Shown here piece after piece: positions 5,190-32,413 of a stretch of 64,000 bases of DNA. The translations under genes and the position numbers were made by a program. The notes under the pieces are model-generated. The model saw only the letters and a list, made by a program, of their open reading frames with translations, ran no database searches and was not told where the DNA came from. This DNA comes from Clostridiales bacterium (lineage in GTDB: Bacteria; Bacillota; Clostridia; Saccharofermentanales; Saccharofermentanaceae): positions 124,001 through 188,000 of the forward strand of contig JAFVAY010000011.1 in NCBI GenBank assembly GCA_017480325.1, read 5' to 3'. The stretch's first letter is position 1. Each line of letters starts with the position of its first letter.

Positions 5190-5901
5190 CGAAGAACTTA
5201 AAAAAGCGCTTAGAAGAGCTTATGAGATCGATTCTACGACCCGCGGAAAAGCTTTCGTAAAAGCACACGAGCAAAGAAGAATCAATCTTACGCGAATTGT
5301 AGCGATGGAGACCACAAGCTTTGGCGTCGAGGGAGTTATCGCTGCTTTGGTTACGGCGCTGATCGGTACTTTGCTGTCACTTCATAACAACAACGAGTTT
5401 ATATGGGTGATGGCATCTTTGATGCCGGTTACGGCGCTTCTTGTTATGACGGGTCTTCGTAAATCTGAAAGATACGGCATGCAGGAGCTGGAGATGGTGA
5501 CCAGATTCTCGGTCAGATTTCAAAGGTGCGTCAGGCTTTTCGTAGCAGGATTTCTGGGAGCTGTTACTTTGGCTGTAACGGCGCCGGTGATGGTTCTTCA
5601 TACAAGCTTCGATCCCGTGCAGACCATAAGCCTTCTCGCGGTCCCGTATCTTCTTACATCCTGGGAGCATATGCTGATCACGCGTCGGATACACGGCAAC
5701 GAGAGCATATATGCGTGCCTGGCGGTAGCGATTATTACAGGGGCTATGCCGATGATCGTCGCCGCAGTGGCAGATGCATCAAGACAAATTATGGTGCGGC
5801 AGATATGTGAGTTCATCGCGCTGCCACTTCTTCTTGCGGTATTTATCGAAGGCTATCTATATGTGAAAGGAAGCATGAATGAGACATGGAACTTATACTA
5901 A
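5182..5901 (+). CDS. Integral membrane protein, candidate sigma-factor regulator
   Basis: A 239-residue protein with about six hydrophobic helices and a ~40-residue cytoplasmic N-terminus. Start ATG overlaps the sigma gene by 8 bases and its own end overlaps the ABC ATPase gene by 16, so the genes are translated together. Position directly behind an ECF sigma is where anti-sigma factors usually lie, and the charged N-terminal stretch (MTNEELKKALRRAYEIDST) could contact the sigma. No zinc-binding HxxxCxxC anti-sigma motif is present, so the anti-sigma role is an inference from position. It could equally be an ABC accessory protein. Confidence 0.7.
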   Translation: MTNEELKKALRRAYEIDSTTRGKAFVKAHEQRRINLTRIVAMETTSFGVEGVIAALVTALIGTLLSLHNNNEFIWVMASLMPVTALLVMTGLRKSERYGMQELEMVTRFSVRFQRCVRLFVAGFLGAVTLAVTAPVMVLHTSFDPVQTISLLAVPYLLTSWEHMLITRRIHGNESIYACLAVAIITGAMPMIVAAVADASRQIMVRQICEFIALPLLLAVFIEGYLYVKGSMNETWNLY

Positions 5902-6584
5902 GCAATATCAGGAAACAATATAAGGATAAGGTGGCGGTGGATACTCTTTCGACCACCATTAAGCCGGGGGTAACCGGACTTCTGGGAGCAAACGGTGCAG
6001 GGAAGACCACGCTGATGCGCATGATCTGTGGTATCTTAAGACCCACCGAGGGAAGTATTTCTCTTGATGATCGTGATGTAAGTGATGAGCTTTACCGCGA
6101 TGCTCTCGGATACCTTCCCCAGGACTTCGGCTACTATCCTAACTTCACCGGCAGGGATTTCCTTCTTTATATCGCGGCTTTGAAAGGTATCGAGAAGTCT
6201 TCCGCCAATCGAAAAGCGGATGACCTGCTTAAGCTGGTCAATCTGGAGGATGCTGCAAAGAAAAAGATCGGAACCTACTCCGGAGGTATGAAGCAGCGGC
6301 TCGGCATAGCACAGGCGGTAATCAATAACCCTAAACTCATTGTGTTGGATGAGCCTACTGCCGGACTCGATCCTAAGGAGAGAGTCAGGTTCAGAAATCT
6401 GATAGCGGAGCTTGGAAAAGACAGCATCGTTATATTGTCAACTCACATTGTATCCGACGTCGAGCACATCGCGGACAGGATTCTCATGATGAAGAACGGA
6501 AGATTCATCTATGACGGTACGCGTGATGATGTGGGAATGGATCTCGAGGAGTTTTACCTTAAGGAGTTTAGCGAGGAATTATAA
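5886..6584 (+). CDS. ABC transporter ATP-binding protein
   Basis: Hydrolyses ATP to drive the partner permease encoded next. All expected motifs are present: Walker A GANGAGKT (34-41), signature YSGGMKQRLG (131-140), Walker B LIVLDEP (151-157), and the H-loop STHIVSDVEHIAD. Length 232 is typical of exporter-type ATPases of the CcmA/NatA class. It lies in one operon with the ECF sigma and membrane protein upstream, and the permease starts one base after its stop. Export of an antibiotic, lipid or sodium are all possible for this class; the sequence does not decide. Confidence 0.92.
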   Translation: MELILSNIRKQYKDKVAVDTLSTTIKPGVTGLLGANGAGKTTLMRMICGILRPTEGSISLDDRDVSDELYRDALGYLPQDFGYYPNFTGRDFLLYIAALKGIEKSSANRKADDLLKLVNLEDAAKKKIGTYSGGMKQRLGIAQAVINNPKLIVLDEPTAGLDPKERVRFRNLIAELGKDSIVILSTHIVSDVEHIADRILMMKNGRFIYDGTRDDVGMDLEEFYLKEFSEEL

Positions 6585-24944: not shown

Positions 24945-25394
24945 ATGGAAAGACTTAATCTTACAGGGATGATTTATTTGGTATGCTCCGTTTTGATGGT
25001 GATTTGTAACTTCCTGCCGATAATGGTGTTGAAGACTGTATTAAACGGCGAAGCTGACGCTACCTATGCGGCGATGATGCCTACCTTAAGCGGGTATGTC
25101 GGACTGATCGCTGCAGGTGCCTGTGTGGCAGTTCCTTTTCTCGGGCTTAAGAACAAGACTGCTCTCGTTGCGACTGTAGCCTCAATTACAAGCGGCATAT
25201 TCCTCGCTCGAAGGATATCCGGTCTCAAGTCCCTCGCATCTGCCGGAATAGGCCTTACCAACATCATGAACTCTCTGTCTTCAAGCAACGCCGCCTCTAT
25301 GACCGTTGACTACTCCTTCGGATTTTACCTTTATATCCTGGCTATCATCCTGGTGGTCGTAAGCGGCTTCGTCTACACCATGAGTGAAGACTAA
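24945..25394 (+). CDS. Small membrane protein, four helices
   Basis: A 149-residue protein with four hydrophobic helices (about 8-30, 43-62, 68-88, 122-143) and short loops. No family recognised. ATG at 24945 has a good AGGGGAG. Its 3' end overlaps the GTG start of the sigma-WYL gene by 11 bases, so it is probably the first gene of that operon. It could be a membrane sensor or immunity-like partner, or an unrelated gene by chance upstream. Confidence 0.7.
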   Translation: MERLNLTGMIYLVCSVLMVICNFLPIMVLKTVLNGEADATYAAMMPTLSGYVGLIAAGACVAVPFLGLKNKTALVATVASITSGIFLARRISGLKSLASAGIGLTNIMNSLSSSNAASMTVDYSFGFYLYILAIILVVVSGFVYTMSED

Positions 25395-26916
25395 AGTTAA
25401 TATGAACGCCAAGGATTTCCTGCCTGATTCTGAAGTAAATGAGCTTATAAGAAGATTCAAGTCCGATAGGGACAGCGATGCTTTGGAAACACTGTGTGAG
25501 AACTACGACAGATTCGTTCACTGGTGCGCGAGAAAGAAGCTTGCGAGGATCGTGTCCTTAACGCCAAAGCAGCGAATGGATATGGAGCCCGATCTGTTCC
25601 AGGCAGGCTGGCAGGGGTTTATTGAGGCTGTCCCGAATTTTGACGAGACTTCCGGCGGTAAATTTTCTACCTACGTCAGGAAATATATTGACGGACAGAT
25701 GAGCAAGGAACTCGATGTACTTTTGAATAGGGCAGGAGTGACGGATAAACCGAAGCCGAAGGTCGGGAAAGCGAAGGCTTCTAAAGTAGCTTCAGACAAG
25801 GCAGATGACATCGTTTCTTCCAAGAGACGGCCGCTTCAGCTCGCGGATGTTCTGAAGCTGTTCTCTGACGAGAATCACAGTATTACCAAGACAGAACTTC
25901 GGGATAATCTTCATAAATACAGGCTGATAAAATACGGTGAGGACTCAAAGCTTGAGACGCCTCTTACGATATCCGATACTCTTGATGCGGTGCTACAGGA
26001 GCGCGAGATCAAGGCGAAGGTCAATGAGGGCAAGGGAAAGAAAGCCCCGGAGATTACTGACCTTCAGTATGTACACCTGTTCTCTAACGAGCAGCTCGAT
26101 GAGCTTATCCAGATGATCTGCTTTACGGAATTGCTTGCGCAGGAAGAGAAGGAGGAACTTATAAGAAAGCTTCTTTCTACTGCGAGCCTTTATTATGAGA
26201 CTCCGTTCTGGGACGGGCTGAAGCTGAAGTTCAATCCGTCTGCGGTCTATGGGCGCTATAGCGGTAAGACTTCTTCTTCTCGAAAAGATTTTTCTTCAAA
26301 CATCAAGACCATACAAAAAGCGATAGACAGTGCGGCACAGATAAGCTTCCTGTTCAATCGTTATAACTCAAATCACGAGTTGGAGCCTTCCAGAAACACT
26401 ATACATAAAATGAGCCCGTACAGGATAGTGGTCTATCATGATAATTTCTACTGCATAGGACTTTGGGAAGGGGCGAAGAATTACAGTCATTATCGTATTG
26501 ATCTTATGTCTGAAGTAAAGATTGAATATGATGAAGAAGGCAGGACGGTTCCTATCAGGCTTTCAAACTTCGAGGGTATTCCGATATGTAATGCCACATG
26601 GGATCCTGCGAAATATATGGCTGAGCATCTGAATATGGCTTATGAGACGCCGACTTCAAAGCCACGGGATATCCTGATAAAGATAAAGGACACTGATTAC
26701 ACGATTTTACATGACTGGTTTGGTAATCATTACGAGAAGACTTCGCTCTCGAAGGACCCGGGGTACGACATAGTCCGCGTTAAGACTTCTCCGTCAATGC
26801 TCGTCCACTGGGCAATGCAGTACGGTACGAGAGTTGAGATATTGGATAAGAGAATCCGTGAGAGCATTCGCAAGGAAATCGAGGCTTTGGAGGAGATGTA
26901 TGGGGATAATAGGTAG
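25384..26916 (+). CDS. Fusion of sigma-70 region 2 with a WYL sensor domain
   Basis: A 510-residue protein of unusual build. Residues ~30-120 look like sigma-70 region 2 (ALETLCENYDRFVHWCARKK, DLFQAGWQGFIEAV, NFDETSGGKFSTYVRKYIDG). A Lys-rich linker (~120-150) leads to a possible winged-helix segment (~152-215, with LADVLKLFSDENHSITKTEL). The C-terminal half (~320-505) is a WYL-type ligand-binding domain (MSPYRIVVYHDNFYCIGLWE, YRIDLMSEVKI, then the C-terminal extension with MLVHWAMQYGTRVEIL). No sigma region 4 is seen. WYL proteins often control DNA-damage or phage-defence genes. Start GTG 25384 or ATG 25402; neither has a strong ribosome binding site. Confidence 0.75.
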   Translation: MKTKVNMNAKDFLPDSEVNELIRRFKSDRDSDALETLCENYDRFVHWCARKKLARIVSLTPKQRMDMEPDLFQAGWQGFIEAVPNFDETSGGKFSTYVRKYIDGQMSKELDVLLNRAGVTDKPKPKVGKAKASKVASDKADDIVSSKRRPLQLADVLKLFSDENHSITKTELRDNLHKYRLIKYGEDSKLETPLTISDTLDAVLQEREIKAKVNEGKGKKAPEITDLQYVHLFSNEQLDELIQMICFTELLAQEEKEELIRKLLSTASLYYETPFWDGLKLKFNPSAVYGRYSGKTSSSRKDFSSNIKTIQKAIDSAAQISFLFNRYNSNHELEPSRNTIHKMSPYRIVVYHDNFYCIGLWEGAKNYSHYRIDLMSEVKIEYDEEGRTVPIRLSNFEGIPICNATWDPAKYMAEHLNMAYETPTSKPRDILIKIKDTDYTILHDWFGNHYEKTSLSKDPGYDIVRVKTSPSMLVHWAMQYGTRVEILDKRIRESIRKEIEALEEMYGDNR

Positions 26917-27646
26917 ACAGACATTTGACGACTTATTAGATAAGTTTTGCGAAAGTAAGAATCCGGATATAATTGATAGTCAACCCAGAACAACAGGATG
27001 TGATGTCGAGGCTTGTTATTTGTGTCAGGCAATTTGGTACAAAGTGACCGGAAATACACTTAATAATGGCAAACCATATTCGAATAATTATTTTGATTGG
27101 AATAATGGGAAGATAGAGAAAACAGTCAGATTTCATTTGGATATTATGAATAATCCAAAGATTGGAAGTTGCGGACTCGCCGCCTCAGTAAATGAAACAG
27201 GGAGAAATAATTGGGAAACGGTTTATCACCATATCGGGAATATGACACCAATTCCATGGTTCGATGTTGCAGGCAATCACAGTGTTAACGGACAGATGCT
27301 TCATAAAGCTCTGGATGAGCGTTGGGATTTGTATCTCAATGTTCTTAGAAGGAATTGGGATGCATGGAATAAGACGGAGGGATTCACATTTAATGGTTAT
27401 ATGATACTGACATGTCAACAGATGTATTATGCCGATATATATGAAAGTATAGAGGATACAAGTGAAATCACATTAGATAGCATTGCTGAATGGAACGGGA
27501 GAATTATAGAGAACCCCGAGATGGATTTGTTATCATTCGAACCTTACGATGGGCGCACGATTGATACTGTTGCAGATGATATTATTAAGCTTATAAAAAT
27601 AAGAGATAGAGTCATCGGACTTAAACTGGACGCATCAAGACAGTGA
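26900..27646 (+). CDS. Unknown protein coupled to the sigma-WYL gene
   Basis: A 248-residue soluble protein, function unknown. It starts at ATG 26900 behind GGAGGAG and overlaps the sigma-WYL gene by 17 bases, so the two are translated together. Notable segments: two Cys in CDVEACYLCQAIWYK, YHHIGNMTPIPWFDVAGNHS near the middle, DERWDLYLNVLRRNWDAWNK and ILTCQQMYYADIYES. It may belong to a DUF with a conserved HIGN-PIP motif (DUF6994-like), but I cannot confirm this. The conserved His, Asn and acidic residues could form a catalytic site; that is only a guess. It is AT-richer than the sigma-WYL gene. Confidence 0.75.
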   Translation: MGIIGRQTFDDLLDKFCESKNPDIIDSQPRTTGCDVEACYLCQAIWYKVTGNTLNNGKPYSNNYFDWNNGKIEKTVRFHLDIMNNPKIGSCGLAASVNETGRNNWETVYHHIGNMTPIPWFDVAGNHSVNGQMLHKALDERWDLYLNVLRRNWDAWNKTEGFTFNGYMILTCQQMYYADIYESIEDTSEITLDSIAEWNGRIIENPEMDLLSFEPYDGRTIDTVADDIIKLIKIRDRVIGLKLDASRQ

Positions 27647-27663
27647 TTTTGACATTTACAGAG

Positions 27664-27730
27664 AAGTATATAGAAGTATATAATCAAATTAAAAGTATAT
27701 AAAAGTATATAGACAAATGAATAGTATATA
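27664..27730. repeat. GTATATA iteron array upstream of the second AAA+ ATPase
   Basis: GTATATA starts at 27666, 27676, 27695, 27705 and 27724: spacings 10, 19, 10, 19. The higher-order unit is 29 bases; units 27664-27692 and 27693-27721 match at 25 of 29 positions, and a third partial unit runs into the AGGAGG ribosome binding site of 27745. It is probably the operator for that gene. Confidence 0.88.
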
Positions 27731-27744
27731 GGAGGTTTTGTCGC

Positions 27745-28788
27745 ATGGATAAGAATCCTTTTGCAATTAATTTTGGTAGAGTCCCTGTGCAGTATATCAG
27801 CAGGGATATCCTCATAGATGAGATAGTAGAGGAATTAAAAAACGATGATGTGCAGAATCAGTGTTTTATGCTTACTGGCACAAGAGGAACTGGAAAAACT
27901 GTCACGATGACAAGTATAGAAAAGAGAATAGAAAGTGACAATCAGTGGATAATAATCAGGCTCAATCCGACGCGTGATATGTTGTCCGGACTTGTAGGTA
28001 AGCTGTATGACAGCCGTGAATTTATTACGAAATTTATTGACAAAAGTATAAATCTGTCAAAATTCGGCATAGGAATTGGGTTAGAATCAAAATCTCCGGT
28101 AGCGGATATCGAATCGGCATTGGAAATTATTCTTAAGGAGATTAAGAGAAAGAAGAAGCGCCTTCTTGTTACTGTTGATGAAGTCTCCAATACCGATTAT
28201 ATGAGGGAGTTTGCTAGTAGCTTTCAGATAATGATAAGAGAGGAGATGCCTATATATCTTGTCATGGCTGGCTTATATGAGAATATTCATAATTTGGAAG
28301 ATGAAGAGAACTTAACTTTTTTATACAGAGCTCCTAAGTACGAGATGGAGCCGCTTAATCTTACTCTTGTAGGTGAAAGGTATCGAAGAGTTTTTAATAT
28401 TGATAGGGATGCAGCCAAGAAGATGGCTATGATTACTAAAGGATATCCATTTGCATACCAAGCTCTTGGAAAGTATTTATGGGAAGATAAAGATCATTCT
28501 ATAAATGATGATGTGCTTGCCAAGTTTGATGAAGCCCTTAGCCGCTATGTGTATAAAAAGATTTGGTCTGAGTTATCTCCTAAAGATCAATGGTATATGA
28601 GTTATATAGTGAAGAAGCAAATAATGACTACAGCCGAGTTGCTGGAGTTGACCGGTTCAAAAAAGAACGAGTTCTCTCAGTATAGAGCGAGATTGAGGGA
28701 TAAAGGTCTGATAAATGTAACTACACGAGGAGTAATTAGGTTTACATTACCGAGATTTGATGTCTTTCTTGACAATGAGATGTTATAG
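27745..28788 (+). CDS. AAA+ ATPase (archaeal-type, ORC/AAA_16-like)
   Basis: A 347-residue P-loop ATPase. Walker A TGTRGTGKT (44-52), Walker B RLLVTVDEVSN (~138-148), then a sensor region (PIYLVMAGLYENIH), a helical lid with KMAMITKGYPFAYQALGKYL, and a C-terminal winged-helix (ELLELTGSKKNEFSQYRARL) that could bind DNA. ATG at 27745 has a perfect AGGAGG. It is strongly AT-rich compared with its neighbours. The GTATATA array lies immediately upstream, fitting a protein that binds its own promoter. The cellular role is unknown; relatives lie with prophage, toxin-antitoxin and defence genes. Confidence 0.85.
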   Translation: MDKNPFAINFGRVPVQYISRDILIDEIVEELKNDDVQNQCFMLTGTRGTGKTVTMTSIEKRIESDNQWIIIRLNPTRDMLSGLVGKLYDSREFITKFIDKSINLSKFGIGIGLESKSPVADIESALEIILKEIKRKKKRLLVTVDEVSNTDYMREFASSFQIMIREEMPIYLVMAGLYENIHNLEDEENLTFLYRAPKYEMEPLNLTLVGERYRRVFNIDRDAAKKMAMITKGYPFAYQALGKYLWEDKDHSINDDVLAKFDEALSRYVYKKIWSELSPKDQWYMSYIVKKQIMTTAELLELTGSKKNEFSQYRARLRDKGLINVTTRGVIRFTLPRFDVFLDNEML

Positions 28789-28810
28789 GTCTTTAGAAAA
28801 CTAAGACCTA
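28786..28810 (+). terminator. Weak stem-loop at the ATPase stop codon
   Basis: TAGGTCTTTAG / CTAAGACCTA with an AAAA loop and one bulged base; the stop codon is in the stem. The following T-run is poor, so the terminator role is uncertain. Confidence 0.4.
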
Positions 28811-28857
28811 TACTTCCATAATATTGTTGAATAAACTTTCGCAAGGGGGCAAAGAAC

Positions 28858-29358
28858 ATGATCGAGAAGATTGAGAAAGTATATATCGATATGGATGGTG
28901 TACTTGTAGATTTTGAAGGCGGCGTGGAGAAGTTGCTCGGGATTGTGCCTCCCGGAGGAAAGCGTCCTGAAGAAGAGGACCGCCTGATGTGGAAACGCAT
29001 GAAGACTTACGAGCACTTCTACGACAGGCTTGAGCCAATGCCGGGAGCGATTGATATGTTTAACAGGCTTTATGAGAGGTTCGGTGACAATCTTGAGGTG
29101 CTTACGGGTATTCCCAAGCCGGAGCGAGGCATACTGACGGCGGCAGAGGATAAGACAAACTGGGTACACCGTGTTCTATCAAAAGAAATAAAGGTAAATC
29201 CGGTAAGAAGACGCGACAAGTATCTTTTCTGCAAAGGGAAGGAATACATCCTTATCGATGATCTTAAAGATAACATAGAGGCGTGGGAGAAAGCGGGAGG
29301 AACCGGCATTCTTCACATAAGCCCTGACGACACAATGAAGAAGATATTTGGTCTTTAA
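28858..29358 (+). CDS. HAD-superfamily 5'-nucleotidase-like phosphatase
   Basis: Phosphatase of the cytosolic 5'(3')-deoxyribonucleotidase class. The 166-residue protein has HAD motif I YIDMDGVLVDF (Asp11, Asp13), motif II in EVLTGIPKP, a Lys in the KEYILIDD region and motif IV IDDLKDNIEAWEKAGG. Family members remove phosphate from nucleoside monophosphates, but the substrate cannot be decided here. ATG at 28858 lies behind AAGGGGG. A terminator follows at 29393. Confidence 0.82.
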   Translation: MIEKIEKVYIDMDGVLVDFEGGVEKLLGIVPPGGKRPEEEDRLMWKRMKTYEHFYDRLEPMPGAIDMFNRLYERFGDNLEVLTGIPKPERGILTAAEDKTNWVHRVLSKEIKVNPVRRRDKYLFCKGKEYILIDDLKDNIEAWEKAGGTGILHISPDDTMKKIFGL

Positions 29359-29392
29359 CTTTTCAAAGACCTCAAAACCCATAATGAATATG

Positions 29393-29427
29393 AAAGAGCC
29401 GTGATGAACAAAGCGGTTCTTTTAATT
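29393..29427 (+). terminator. Rho-independent terminator after the nucleotidase gene
   Basis: AAAGAGCCG (29393-29401) pairs with CGGTTCTTT (29414-29422) over nine pairs with one wobble, 12-base loop, then TTTTAATTTG. A second smaller stem, GGTCTTT/AAAGACC, overlaps the gene's stop at 29350-29371. Confidence 0.75.
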
Positions 29428-29452: not shown

Positions 29453-30235
29453 ATGAAGAACATGATGAAAACCTACTTAGGCAAAGACTACAGCGACAAT
29501 CACCTTAGGAATTTCTGCCTATACTGGCTTAAAGGAATGTCCTGCAAGCCGGCGTGGGAAGATGACAGCAAAGGAAGGCGCGCCGTGTATGATACTTGGC
29601 GTAAAGATAACGACCTCGACTGCCTGTACTTTGACGGCGATCTCAAGGCGGACACGCTCATGAGCGCTTGGACGATAATCAAGTGGGTGGCTGAGTTTAT
29701 CAACAGAGAAGAAGGCAGAAAGTTCACCAAATGTGAAGCGGACCTTAAGCTGTTGGCAGATGTCCCTGATACTTACCTGCCGCCGGAATATGAGCTGGTA
29801 CAGCTTCTGTACAAGTTCCTCGAGCTCGCGGAGCTTCCGTGCAACTACATCCTGCTTCCTGACAGGAACATGAACGCTGACAGATACTGCTTCAGAAGAA
29901 GCGCCAAATTCAGGATGCTCTACGATCAGGTTCCTGCAACCTTGTGGCATGTCTTTGAGAAGGAGACGCTGGGGATGTATTTCCTTGATGCAACCGGTGA
30001 AGTCGATGAGGAGAAAGTGGTAGCATGGATCTTGCGCGAAAAACTCGAAATGGGCTTCAGGAAAGGAGTCATCAAGCAGAGCGAGGTAATACCGCTTACA
30101 AAAACAATAAGTCCGCGATCAGGAAAAAGGCTTAATAAGGAAGACGAGCTCACGGAGGCACTAAAGTACATGATCAGCTTTCTCAGTGAAAGAGGCGAAA
30201 AATTGACTACCGGTCCGATGCTAACGGGGATATGA
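29453..30235 (+). CDS. Hypothetical protein (260 aa)
   Basis: Not recognised. Soluble, mixed-charge protein with aromatic-rich N-terminus (NFCLYWLKGMSC, DLDCLYFDGDLKADTLMSAW), a helical middle (YELVQLLYKFLELAELPCNY) and a basic C-terminus. ATG at 29453 follows a clear GGAGG, and the reading frame has the neighbours' codon use, so it is a real gene. It is first in a run of same-strand genes of unknown function (29453-32413), which may form a loose accessory operon. Confidence 0.7.
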   Translation: MKNMMKTYLGKDYSDNHLRNFCLYWLKGMSCKPAWEDDSKGRRAVYDTWRKDNDLDCLYFDGDLKADTLMSAWTIIKWVAEFINREEGRKFTKCEADLKLLADVPDTYLPPEYELVQLLYKFLELAELPCNYILLPDRNMNADRYCFRRSAKFRMLYDQVPATLWHVFEKETLGMYFLDATGEVDEEKVVAWILREKLEMGFRKGVIKQSEVIPLTKTISPRSGKRLNKEDELTEALKYMISFLSERGEKLTTGPMLTGI

Positions 30236-30269: not shown

Positions 30270-30689
30270 ATGAAAGTACTGATAATACCGGATGTGCATC
30301 TGAAGCCGGAGATATTTGATTGGGCTATTGACGATGTTCTTTTCTCTCTTGCCGGACTTACAAAAGAGTTCGTAGAATTCTATATGAATGAGTTAAGAGA
30401 TGATGTTAATGCAATGATTAAGGCAGTCAACTGTTTCGGAGATGATGTTCTCTGGGATGAGACAAGTCCGATATGGGCAAGATCTCAGGATGGGTACAGA
30501 ATAGGAAATGTTTATCCGCCGGATTTGATGCAGGTAGTAGGACATACGCCGATGAGACGAATAGAGCAGGAAGGAAACCTTCTGACGACAGACGTTTTCT
30601 CTACTTGGTCAGACGGTAGAAGCTACGGTGAAGAGAGACTCTGCTGGGTAGATACGGTCACGAGAAAGTGGGGGTATTGTAACGGATGA
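30270..30689 (+). CDS. Internally deleted metallophosphoesterase
   Basis: A 139-residue relic. It begins as a calcineurin-type phosphoesterase (MKVLIIPDVHLKPEIFDWA, with the metal-binding D-x-H) and ends as one (VVGHTPM, then TTDVFSTWSDGRS), but intact relatives have about 90 more residues between these, including the GNHD metal motif. The join falls near residue 20. The FSHAG motif near the join has become FSLAG, losing another metal ligand. The open reading frame is intact and has a ribosome binding site (AGGGGG), so it may be expressed, but it should lack activity. Confidence 0.75.
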   Translation: MKVLIIPDVHLKPEIFDWAIDDVLFSLAGLTKEFVEFYMNELRDDVNAMIKAVNCFGDDVLWDETSPIWARSQDGYRIGNVYPPDLMQVVGHTPMRRIEQEGNLLTTDVFSTWSDGRSYGEERLCWVDTVTRKWGYCNG

Positions 30690-30716: not shown

Positions 30717-31382
30717 ATGTGTAAAAAAGTGTATTCGGGCTTTACATACGAGTTGTCGAAGGTAATTGATACAGGCGGTGCAGACAGTAAACTCAGGGCA
30801 TACGTTCTTGAGACAGGCGGGTGGGATGATCCTACCCGCTTTGTTAATCTTGGCAGAAGAAGATACATTCACGTCCGAGGGAATTGTTATCTGGTGTTCG
30901 TGTCGGAAGACGAGATTAAGATAACAGAGTTGAAATTCGACGATTCGAGGCTATATAAAGGGCATCCGGTAATCACGATTACAGATGTGCTGAAAGGTAT
31001 GGGAATAAAGTGCAAGATTATAGCTGATTATGAAAGCGGAACCCGGGCGCACGGCGCAGCGTGGAAGCGCGCACTTAATGAAAGACAGGCGATTTTCGCG
31101 CAGAGCGGGTATGCCCTTCAGAAGAGGTTCTGGTGTGACTGCTGGGAAGTAAATTTTGATATGGTCTTAGTAAAGCACAACTGGTTTTTGCTGGATGGCG
31201 CAGAGGTGAGAAACATCGGAGTGGACCTGGTGTTAGACGATATTATGAACGCGACTCATATTTATATCGAAAGGATATTATCCGAACCGATATCAATAAG
31301 TCGGGACGAGGCTGTAAAGCTTCTGAAACTAAAGGGAATAGAAGAAAGTACAATTTACGATTTGGTAGGGAAAGGCAGGTAA
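30717..31382 (+). CDS. Hypothetical protein (221 aa)
   Basis: Not recognised. Soluble protein with several Cys and Trp (GNCYLVFVSEDEIKITELKF, LQKRFWCDCWEVNFDMVLV) and a C-terminal helix-hairpin segment (ISRDEAVKLLKLKGIEESTI) that could be a small DNA- or protein-binding element. The ATG at 30717 follows AGGTGCAGGAAG. It lies 27 bases after the broken phosphoesterase and five bases before the next gene, so it is operonic. Confidence 0.65.
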   Translation: MCKKVYSGFTYELSKVIDTGGADSKLRAYVLETGGWDDPTRFVNLGRRRYIHVRGNCYLVFVSEDEIKITELKFDDSRLYKGHPVITITDVLKGMGIKCKIIADYESGTRAHGAAWKRALNERQAIFAQSGYALQKRFWCDCWEVNFDMVLVKHNWFLLDGAEVRNIGVDLVLDDIMNATHIYIERILSEPISISRDEAVKLLKLKGIEESTIYDLVGKGR

Positions 31383-31387
31383 TTAAA

Positions 31388-32413
31388 ATGAAGAACAGAA
31401 TAGATAAAAGACCTGAAAATCTTTGGTCAGACGACATCTGGGAGTTATACTGCTTTCTGCAGGACTGGAAAGAGGATACAAAGTATATCTTCTGGACAGA
31501 CAGGCGTAGCCGTAGACCCGGAATCAAGGAGCATCTGTATCTGATAAAAGATATCGAATTGAATATAGGTGAAGTCAGCTACTATGCGGACAGCACTGAT
31601 GTTGAGATACCCATGAAAGATGAGGAATTAATAATCCATCTTGAGCATAACGATAGAGGAAATATACAGTCCTCACAGGCGTATGTATTGCTCGATGGGA
31701 TGTATAAAGTTGACGGCGGTGTAGAAGAACTCTTAGCCAGAACCCACTTAAGGCTTCCCGTTAAGTCAGATATTGATGAGGCAAAGTATGATGAGTATGG
31801 TGTGCCTGTTTATAATCACGAGGAACCTGTTCCGTATATAAAGCCTACGCCTCAGCAGTTTGCGATAAGCTCATTTGAGGGTTTCCTTAAGTATTCGGGT
31901 ATCACATATTCCGAAGATTCGGAAGGGGAAGTAAAGAGTGTAACTTTTGAGTATGATTCGACAGATGATGCCCCCGGGGTTGTTATTAAGGGCAAGGCTG
32001 TATTCGGAAAGAAGATTAAGCTTCGCTTCTTCTATGGCGAAAAGGCATCTCATGTCTTAAGAAGTGAGAATAAGAAAGATCTTATCAAACTGATTAACTA
32101 TATCAATTCACGGGTCGATCTGGGACTTGCTCGCATTTATATGGAAGATGGCGATGAGCCTGATATAGTAATTGCTTCCGATGTTCCTTACGACCTTACC
32201 CATCATGGCGGAATTGCTCTTACTACTGCCGAGCTGATTACGGAAAGCAGTGTTAAGCTTCTTAAGGAACTCGCTTATCCTATTTTCGAGTTTATGCATG
32301 GCAGTATGAGTTATAAAGAAGTGCGCGAGTACATCGAGAGTGATATCCTTAAAGGTAACCACAATGCGATGATTCTTGAGTGGATAGACGACTTTAATAA
32401 AAAGCTGCGGTAA
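31388..32413 (+). CDS. Hypothetical protein, possible YbjN-like C-terminal domain
   Basis: A 341-residue soluble protein. The N-terminal third is acidic with WELYCFLQDWKEDTKYIFW. From about residue 210 the pattern NYINSRVDLGLARIYMEDGD, then IVIASDVPYDLTHHGG and SVKLLKELAYPIFEFM, resembles YbjN-type sensory/chaperone-like domains, but the match is by eye and weak. It starts five bases after the previous stop. The downstream secreted-protein gene starts 32 bases later. Confidence 0.65.
   Translation: MKNRIDKRPENLWSDDIWELYCFLQDWKEDTKYIFWTDRRSRRPGIKEHLYLIKDIELNIGEVSYYADSTDVEIPMKDEELIIHLEHNDRGNIQSSQAYVLLDGMYKVDGGVEELLARTHLRLPVKSDIDEAKYDEYGVPVYNHEEPVPYIKPTPQQFAISSFEGFLKYSGITYSEDSEGEVKSVTFEYDSTDDAPGVVIKGKAVFGKKIKLRFFYGEKASHVLRSENKKDLIKLINYINSRVDLGLARIYMEDGDEPDIVIASDVPYDLTHHGGIALTTAELITESSVKLLKELAYPIFEFMHGSMSYKEVREYIESDILKGNHNAMILEWIDDFNKKLR

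What the first reader, a model, noticed from the sequence alone, without database searches (positions are those of the whole stretch)
24945..27646. Three overlapping genes around the sigma-WYL protein: candidate new system
A four-helix membrane protein, the sigma-WYL fusion (11-base overlap) and an unknown HIGN-motif protein (17-base overlap with a strong internal ribosome binding site) are packed as one unit. Membrane protein + sensor-regulator + unknown effector is a plausible stress or defence layout. Function is inference.
Basis: partly seen in the sequence, partly recalled or inferred. Interest (0 to 1): 0.7.

Follow-up and report, generated by a model that had tools for sequence, protein, structure and literature searches.

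The report
Sensor-fused sigma factor with own promoters
A rumen Clostridia genome carries a gene-switch protein that looks like half a sigma factor joined to a DNA-damage-type sensor, and the genes after it in many related genomes share a matching promoter, which suggests a previously undescribed kind of self-contained stress-response island.

Summary
The membrane-protein family (24945-25394) is independent of the sigma-WYL protein across 148 related genomes (p 0.70). The sigma-WYL protein (25402-26916) is sigma-70 region 2 + winged helix + WYL + WCX, without region 4. It heads an island found at 78 loci, mostly Lachnospiraceae and Saccharofermentans. The gene behind it (26900-27646) is a divergent DUF6994 (HNH-related) protein in an often co-translated, exchangeable slot. 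The genes after the slot (nucleotidase, phosphatases, HD, DUF6994 proteins) carry a shared bipartite site: a roughly 22-bp dyad, then TCCATAATATA, dyad centre 18 bp before CCATAAT. Sites lie almost only downstream on the coding strand (91 against 8 on the other strand, held out). In 148 whole genomes they occur in 10 of 13 with sigma-WYL and 0 of 135 without. The window has two. Best reading: a sensor-gated sigma factor, sigma2 on the -10 and the WYL dimer on a dyad replacing the -35, switching on a local battery of nucleic-acid and nucleotide enzymes. That it is a promoter, the ligand (ssDNA-like?) and defence are inferred. My paper searches found no description of fusion or site.

The parts
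25402..26916 (+). sigma-WYL gene (ATG 25402 preferred; GTG 25384 also in frame), 504 aa
   Evidence: 44-sequence alignment A3
25426..25728 (+). sigma-70 region 2 domain (residues 9-109 of the ATG form)
   Evidence: VIA-align SigB 8x6g_H Z 14.8, rmsd 1.3, 92 aligned; profile hits SigF 1l0o E 2.4e-10, SigK 8vjl 7e-9; Pfam
25813..26001 (+). winged-helix DNA-binding domain (about residues 138-200) in place of sigma region 4
   Evidence: model residues 135-503 align to DriD 8tpk_B, Z 12.0, rmsd 15.5, 264 aligned; helices in model
26221..26910 (+). WYL + WCX sensor domains (residues 274-503)
   Evidence: DriD C-domain 9cu3_A Z 13.2, rmsd 4.3, 190 aligned; Pfam WYL
26889..26895 (+). GGAGGAG ribosome-binding site of the slot gene, inside sigma-WYL
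26900..27646 (+). slot gene: divergent DUF6994-like (HNH-related) protein P0003, 248 aa, overlapping sigma-WYL by 17 bases
   Evidence: iterative profile E 8e-17; own-genome match to profile A2 E 2.7e-29, P0003 being a row of A2; closest relative directly behind sigma-WYL in L152
27745..28788 (+). P-loop ATPase (STAND/ATPase_2-like), not seen in the other islands read; stands before the first dyad site
28788..28830 (+). dyad promoter 1: GGTCTTTAGAAAACTAAGACC dyad (28788-28808) + CCATAATATT (28816-28825)
   Evidence: cmsearch 30.4 bits, E 8.8e-5 in the window, not a training row; missed by the plain PWM when the window is held out
28858..29358 (+). NT5C-like HAD nucleotidase (cargo family K6)
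   Evidence: Pfam NT5C 29.2 bits, cut-off 24.8
29350..29393 (+). dyad promoter 2: GGTCTTTAACTTTTCAAAGACC (29350-29371) + CCATAAT (29379-29385)
   Evidence: cmsearch 31.8 bits, E 4.2e-5 (a training row); found with held-out PWM
29453..30235 (+). cargo family K2, second DUF6994-superfamily protein
   Evidence: profile E 4.6e-44; family downstream of sigma-WYL in 20 loci, upstream in 0
30270..30689 (+). metallophosphoesterase remnant (139 aa against 233-237 aa in relatives; middle with GD and GNHD motifs missing)
30717..31382 (+). cargo family K8, unknown
31388..32413 (+). cargo family K9, unknown; probable end of the shared island
24945..25394 (+). membrane protein P0001: a neighbour, not a part

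Best explanation
The sigma-WYL protein is a sensor-gated alternative sigma factor. Its N-terminus is sigma region 2, which should hold RNA polymerase and read the -10 (TCCATAATATA). Region 4 is missing; a winged helix with WYL and WCX dimerisation domains takes its place and should read, as a dimer, a dyad sitting where the -35 would be. A small ligand, by analogy with DriD and PafBC a single-stranded nucleic-acid fragment, would switch it on. It then turns on a local battery of cargo genes (nucleotidase, metallophosphatases, HD, DUF6994 proteins, kinase). The slot gene behind it (here a DUF6994/HNH-like protein) is co-translated with the sensor, outside the switched set, and may make or gate the signal. 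Shown: domain make-up, conserved island, the bipartite site, its fixed spacing, strand and association with the gene. Inferred: that the site is a promoter used by this protein, the ligand, the roles of slot and cargo.
For: Domains and folds. Sites: 94 downstream on the coding strand, 3 on the other strand, 11 upstream + and 0 upstream -, in 58 of 77 loci scanned; held-out 91 / 8 / 11 / 2, 56 of 77 loci. Spacing without any alignment: dyad centre 18 bp before CCATAWT in 30 cases, at most 2 at any other offset. Dyad arms covary: both-sided changes 44 against 22 when shuffled, 0/500; swapping arms between sites lowers complementarity, 6.16 to 5.47 of 9. Whole genomes: sites in 10 of 13 with sigma-WYL, 0 of 135 without, p 3e-13. 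A loose window-type pattern gives 2 hits in the 2.08-Mb genome, both in the island; reversed control 0. One unlinked site in G030 precedes a cargo operon (K8-, K26-, K1-like) with no sigma-WYL beside it. Split form: a separate sigma protein (one member scanned: r2, plus r4 below cut-off) plus WYL gene at 10 loci, 7 with the same site. Slot rule: 0 of 32 tight next genes have a site before them, 23 of 32 have one right after; 27 of 40 wider gaps hold a site. The -10 CATAATATA fits the SigK consensus CATANNNTD (passage in PMC9562818), and SigK is among the best profile hits.
Against: No experiment. A fixed dyad next to a -10 is also what a class II activator with the housekeeping sigma would give. 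WYL ssDNA sensing needs an R-x-x-R pair in PafB (passages of PMC11804915); here I read HYRVDL, so the second Arg would be Leu (my own pairing, no structure-based alignment). Partial Mantel gave no specific wHTH-dyad link (r 0.03, p 0.38); only WCX stood out (r 0.34, p 0.002). 19 of 77 loci show no downstream site. R1 was trained partly on Saccharofermentans sites.
Confidence: 0.7

Rival explanations
1. The protein is a WYL activator (or repressor) that binds the dyad beside a -10 read by the housekeeping sigma; its sigma2 domain only tethers polymerase or is a relic.
For: DriD and PafBC work with the housekeeping sigma (passages). CATAAT is close to TATAAT (recalled). The split form has a separate sigma protein.
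Against: Sigma2 is kept at Z 14.8, rmsd 1.3 to SigB, with DL..G and TY conserved in the family. Conservation at the site extends over TCCATAATATA..TG, wider than a plain -10.
Confidence: 0.22
2. The whole island is an anti-phage system in which the slot protein is the nuclease effector and the cargo repairs or limits the damage. (This concerns the purpose and can hold together with the regulatory reading.)
For: WYL regulators are proposed to control defence (Makarova 2014, passages). The slot is variable: DUF6994 (related to HNH, passage in PMC11701544), Exo_endo_phos in L107. HAD_SAK_2, kinase, HD and RNA 2'-phosphotransferase-like genes lie in islands. Patchy spread, 13 of 148 relatives.
Against: No PADLOC system matched beyond WYL and single hits. 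No RNA ligase motif found by regex (RtcB 0). No link to known defence genes was shown. The slot gene is not under the site, which fits a sensor partner as well as an effector.
Confidence: 0.35
3. One reading: membrane protein + sigma-WYL + HIGN protein act together.
For: They are adjacent and co-oriented in this genome.
Against: P0001 and sigma-WYL are independent over 148 genomes, p 0.70. At the same chromosomal flank in L066/L067 another gene stands in P0001's place.
Confidence: 0.03

Closest known systems
DriD (Caulobacter) and PafBC (mycobacteria), ssDNA-activated WYL activators
   Same: wHTH-WYL-WCX fold (Foldseek E 3.5e-11 and 1.5e-10); dimeric site at or near the -35 (passages)
   Different: They have no sigma domain and work with the housekeeping sigma; here sigma2 is in the same chain, and the second Arg of the ssDNA-binding pair seems to be replaced
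Group-3 sigma factors SigF/SigB/SigK
   Same: Region 2 sequence and fold; CATAnnnT-type -10 for SigK
   Different: No region 4; the -35 is replaced by a dyad; a sensor domain is fused on
BrxR / CapW WYL regulators of defence systems
   Same: WYL fold, role next to a variable gene set
   Different: No sigma domain; the gene set here is not BREX or CBASS by PADLOC
DUF6994 (PF22507)
   Same: Slot and cargo proteins; K11, K12 and the L100 slot pass the Pfam cut-off
   Different: The window protein itself scores 15.4, below the cut-off of 27, and is joined only by the iterated profile
RNA repair systems with 'Swiss army knife' HAD proteins (recalled literature)
   Same: HAD_SAK_2, phosphatase, kinase, HD and RNA 2'-phosphotransferase-like genes occur in islands
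   Different: No ligase found, and only by simple motifs

Membership tests
Sigma-70 family | Region 2 (core binding, -10 reading) | tested here: met
   Pfam 25.3 bits, cut-off 24; Z 14.8 to SigB
Sigma-70 family | Region 4 (-35 reading) | tested here: not met
   No Sigma70_r4 match; profile matches to PDB sigma factors cover mainly region 2; wHTH-WYL follows in the model. Not filed as a standard sigma-70 factor; said to work like one.
Sigma-70 family | Binds core RNA polymerase and starts transcription | not testable with these tools
   needs biochemistry
WYL activators (DriD/PafBC type) | wHTH-WYL-WCX order | tested here: met
   model 135-503 to DriD
WYL activators (DriD/PafBC type) | Arg pair (R-x-x-R) that binds ssDNA | tested here: inconclusive
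   alignment shows HYRVDL with the first Arg invariant; pairing with PafB made by eye
DUF6994 (PF22507) | Pfam gathering score 27 | tested here: not met
   P0003 15.4 bits; related by iterated profile E 8e-17, so a relative, not filed as a Pfam member
DUF6994 (PF22507) | HNH-like fold | tested here: inconclusive
   P0003 model pLDDT 55; no fold match
Known anti-phage system | Match to a PADLOC system | tested here: not met
   Ten window proteins: only WYL at clear significance. 148 island representatives: WYL 2, the other listed families 1 each (25 of 46 families shown)
RNA repair system | RNA ligase (recalled definition) | tested here: inconclusive
   simple motif search only: RtcB 0

The most novel reading that the evidence does not exclude
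A new class of transcription initiation factor in which the -35-reading half of sigma has been replaced by a ligand-sensing dimer, so that one protein is sensor, activator and sigma at once. It runs a mobile, mix-and-match island: an exchangeable nuclease-like partner makes or gates the nucleic-acid signal, and the switched cargo mends or recycles nucleic-acid ends after phage attack or damage.
Probability: 0.3. Interest if true: 0.93.

Novelty: new variant of a known kind. Interest (0 to 1): 0.8.

Why it matters
If true, it shows a sigma factor that carries its own signal sensor and has exchanged the -35 code for a dyad code, a direct evolutionary step between sigma factors and activators; split and fused forms with the same site exist side by side. 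It also assigns a promoter, and so a regulon, to a large set of unnamed gut and rumen genes (nucleotidases, phosphatases, DUF6994 proteins) and makes their function testable with one in vitro transcription assay.

Tried and rejected
P0001 as part of the system: rejected. Phage or plasmid origin: tblastn of sigma-WYL gave 17 phage and 6 plasmid records, none covering 80%; viral contigs 0 confirmed of 3 pattern matches; P0003 and the 29453 protein no phage match. Fold of P0003: low-confidence model, no match in pdb or viral libraries. GIY-YIG identity of several slot proteins: guessed by eye, no Pfam support, so not claimed. wHTH-dyad co-evolution by partial Mantel: not supported. A site before sigma-WYL itself: only 2 of about 55 upstream regions (L105, L109). 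First EM motif run found the motif in island intergenic regions; the sigma-WYL-upstream and left-flank sets gave no comparable motif. RNA terminator reading of the dyad: not favoured, as no G+C-rich stem or T-run follows (by eye). Rows dropped: L110 (near copy of L108) and L157 (no + strand sigma-WYL ORF) from the site scans; A5 uses 85 of the 94 sites (one search listed 90 above score 19; the ones I left out include L101:13892, L145, L151 and L158).

Full report
Observation. The three ORFs exist at the stated places. The second protein is a real fusion: Sigma70_r2 at residues 70-108 and WYL at 307-380 (GTG numbering), both above Pfam cut-offs. The 17-base overlap with the third gene, with GGAGGAG inside the second, is in the sequence. 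The 11-base overlap of genes 1 and 2 depends on a GTG start; homologues favour ATG 25402, which does not overlap. The source genome is probably a rumen Saccharofermentans: several genomes called 'same genus' have contigs whose lengths equal those of records titled Saccharofermentans sp. (inference).

Which genes belong together. In 148 related genomes sigma-WYL (profile A3) is in 13, DUF6994-like proteins (profile A2) in 13 genomes at 15 places, and the membrane protein in 26. Sigma-WYL and the DUF6994-like family share 11 genomes (p 5e-13); by comparing coordinates, 9 of the 15 places lie directly behind sigma-WYL, one of them (G035) behind a sigma-WYL end cut by the contig edge. Sigma-WYL and the membrane protein share 3 (p 0.70). 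P0003 by single-sequence search is found only in its own genome. Its relatives appear with an iterated profile that starts from another member, K11, and converges on 82 proteins, P0003 included at E 8e-17 (the database of 1697 proteins holds some regions twice). The closest relative of P0003 sits directly behind sigma-WYL in a Lachnospiraceae contig, L152.

The island. A scan of 84,980 species genomes returned 78 loci that encode a relative of sigma-WYL, mostly Lachnospiraceae and Saccharofermentans. The viral collection gave none; phages and plasmids gave only partial matches. In a class-wide sample of 391 genomes the only matches that include the sigma part were in the window's own genus; four others match the WYL half alone. 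Families recur downstream much more than upstream: K1 phosphatase 22 loci against 4, K2 20 against 0, K4 16 against 1, K5 13 against 2, K6 nucleotidase 10 against 3, K9 8 against 0. Annotated members include HAD_SAK_2, an AAA_33 kinase, metallophosphoesterases, Exo_endo_phos and acetyltransferases, NinI-like phosphatase and RNA 2'-phosphotransferase families, and HD proteins by motif. PADLOC gave no known system.

The slot. Counting loci with a + strand sigma-WYL and something downstream, the window included, the next gene is DUF6994-like by profile in 20 of 74; a DUF6994-like gene occurs anywhere in the stretch in 46 of 74. More slot genes are DUF6994 by Pfam (L100, 59 bits) or by eye (L103, L150). 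Others are different: an Exo_endo_phos protein in L107, a phosphoesterase start in L135, and unidentified proteins. Overlaps of 8, 14, 17 or 20 bases are common.

The promoter. An EM motif search on 124 intergenic regions downstream of sigma-WYL gave log-likelihood 543 at width 24 against 78 in shuffled sequence. At width 44 it is a dyad of about 22 bp, 7 bp, and TCCATAATATA..TG. Scanning the loci gave 94 sites downstream on the coding strand, 3 on the opposite strand and 11 upstream, 0 upstream on the opposite strand; 58 loci have a downstream site (its printed total of 78 includes L157, which was not scanned, so 77). Five-fold held-out training gave 91, 8, 11 and 2, in 56 of 77 loci. An alignment-free count found the dyad centre 18 bp before CCATAWT in 30 cases and at most 2 at any other offset. 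The dyad arms covary across sites and are more alike within a locus (16.4 of 22) than between loci (13.6 of 22). Of 91 sites with a following gene, 36 end 21-40 bp before its start.

Whole genomes. A covariance model of 85 sites found 17 sites in 148 genomes, all in 10 of the 13 sigma-WYL genomes and none in the other 135. By coordinates, 16 lie in islands just behind sigma-WYL on its strand. The exception in G030 stands before a three-gene cargo operon (K8-like, K26-like, K1-like) with no regulator beside it, which suggests action in trans. The model was trained partly on Saccharofermentans sites, but site 28788 of the window was not in training and is found at E 8.8e-5. That same site falls below threshold with the plain PWM when the window is held out, and one stray hit at 6370 on the minus strand appears in one fold. 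A loose window-type pattern hits the 2.08-Mb genome exactly twice, at the two island sites.

Mechanism. The model (pLDDT 78.7) matches sigma factors over residues 1-109 and DriD over 135-503. Published DriD and PafBC are switched on by ssDNA in the WYL domain and bring polymerase to poor promoters (passages of PMC12340889 and PMC11804915). Here the sigma part is in the same chain, and the site has the parts expected: a dyad for a dimer where the -35 would be, and a CATAATATA -10 that fits the SigK consensus CATANNNTD (passage of PMC9562818). SigF and SigK are among the best sequence relatives of the sigma part. Ten loci have a separate sigma protein beside a WYL gene; the one member scanned has region 2 and, below cut-off, region 4. 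Seven of the ten have the same site. The slot gene is not under the site: 0 of 32 tightly following genes have one before them and 23 of 32 have one right after, while 27 of 40 wider gaps hold one. So the slot protein is probably made with the sensor and the cargo is switched. In the window the ATPase gene 27745-28788 stands between the slot gene and the first site. What the ligand is remains open: by my own pairing the second Arg of the PafB pair is Leu here. A test for co-evolution of winged helix and dyad gave no specific signal.

Novelty. Paper searches for WYL with sigma terms and for RNA repair with WYL listed no paper on a sigma2-WYL fusion or this site (listings only, except for the passages named); the WYL fusions listed in the passages read of Makarova 2014 do not include sigma. 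The library lacks most subscription papers; the Keller and Weber-Ban review of WYL proteins, known to me only from reference lists, was not read.

Noticed in passing
window 30270-30689: Metallophosphoesterase of the island has lost about 95 internal residues, with the GD and GNHD motifs, in frame; probably inactive.
   Followed up: partly
window 27647-27744: Gap before the ATPase gene holds repeated agtatata units; the ATPase has no dyad site and no counterpart in the other islands read.
   Followed up: no
L178 (G030:C22:66001-73500), site at about 5741-5784 minus: Dyad promoter before a K8-like, K26-like, K1-like operon without a sigma-WYL gene beside it: a candidate trans target.
   Followed up: partly
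L136, L138, L139 upstream of the K7 sigma gene: In three split loci a dyad site stands before the separate sigma gene, suggesting autoregulation there.
   Followed up: no
G000:C12:61272-61682, G129:C159:9977-10384, G030:C4:1320-1760: Weak matches to the C-terminal half of the DUF6994-like profile in ORFs of about 240 aa away from sigma-WYL.
   Followed up: no
window 24945-25394 and L080 8873-9940: Small membrane-protein family matched only in the window's own genus in the 148-genome search, sometimes in tandem; function unknown.
   Followed up: no
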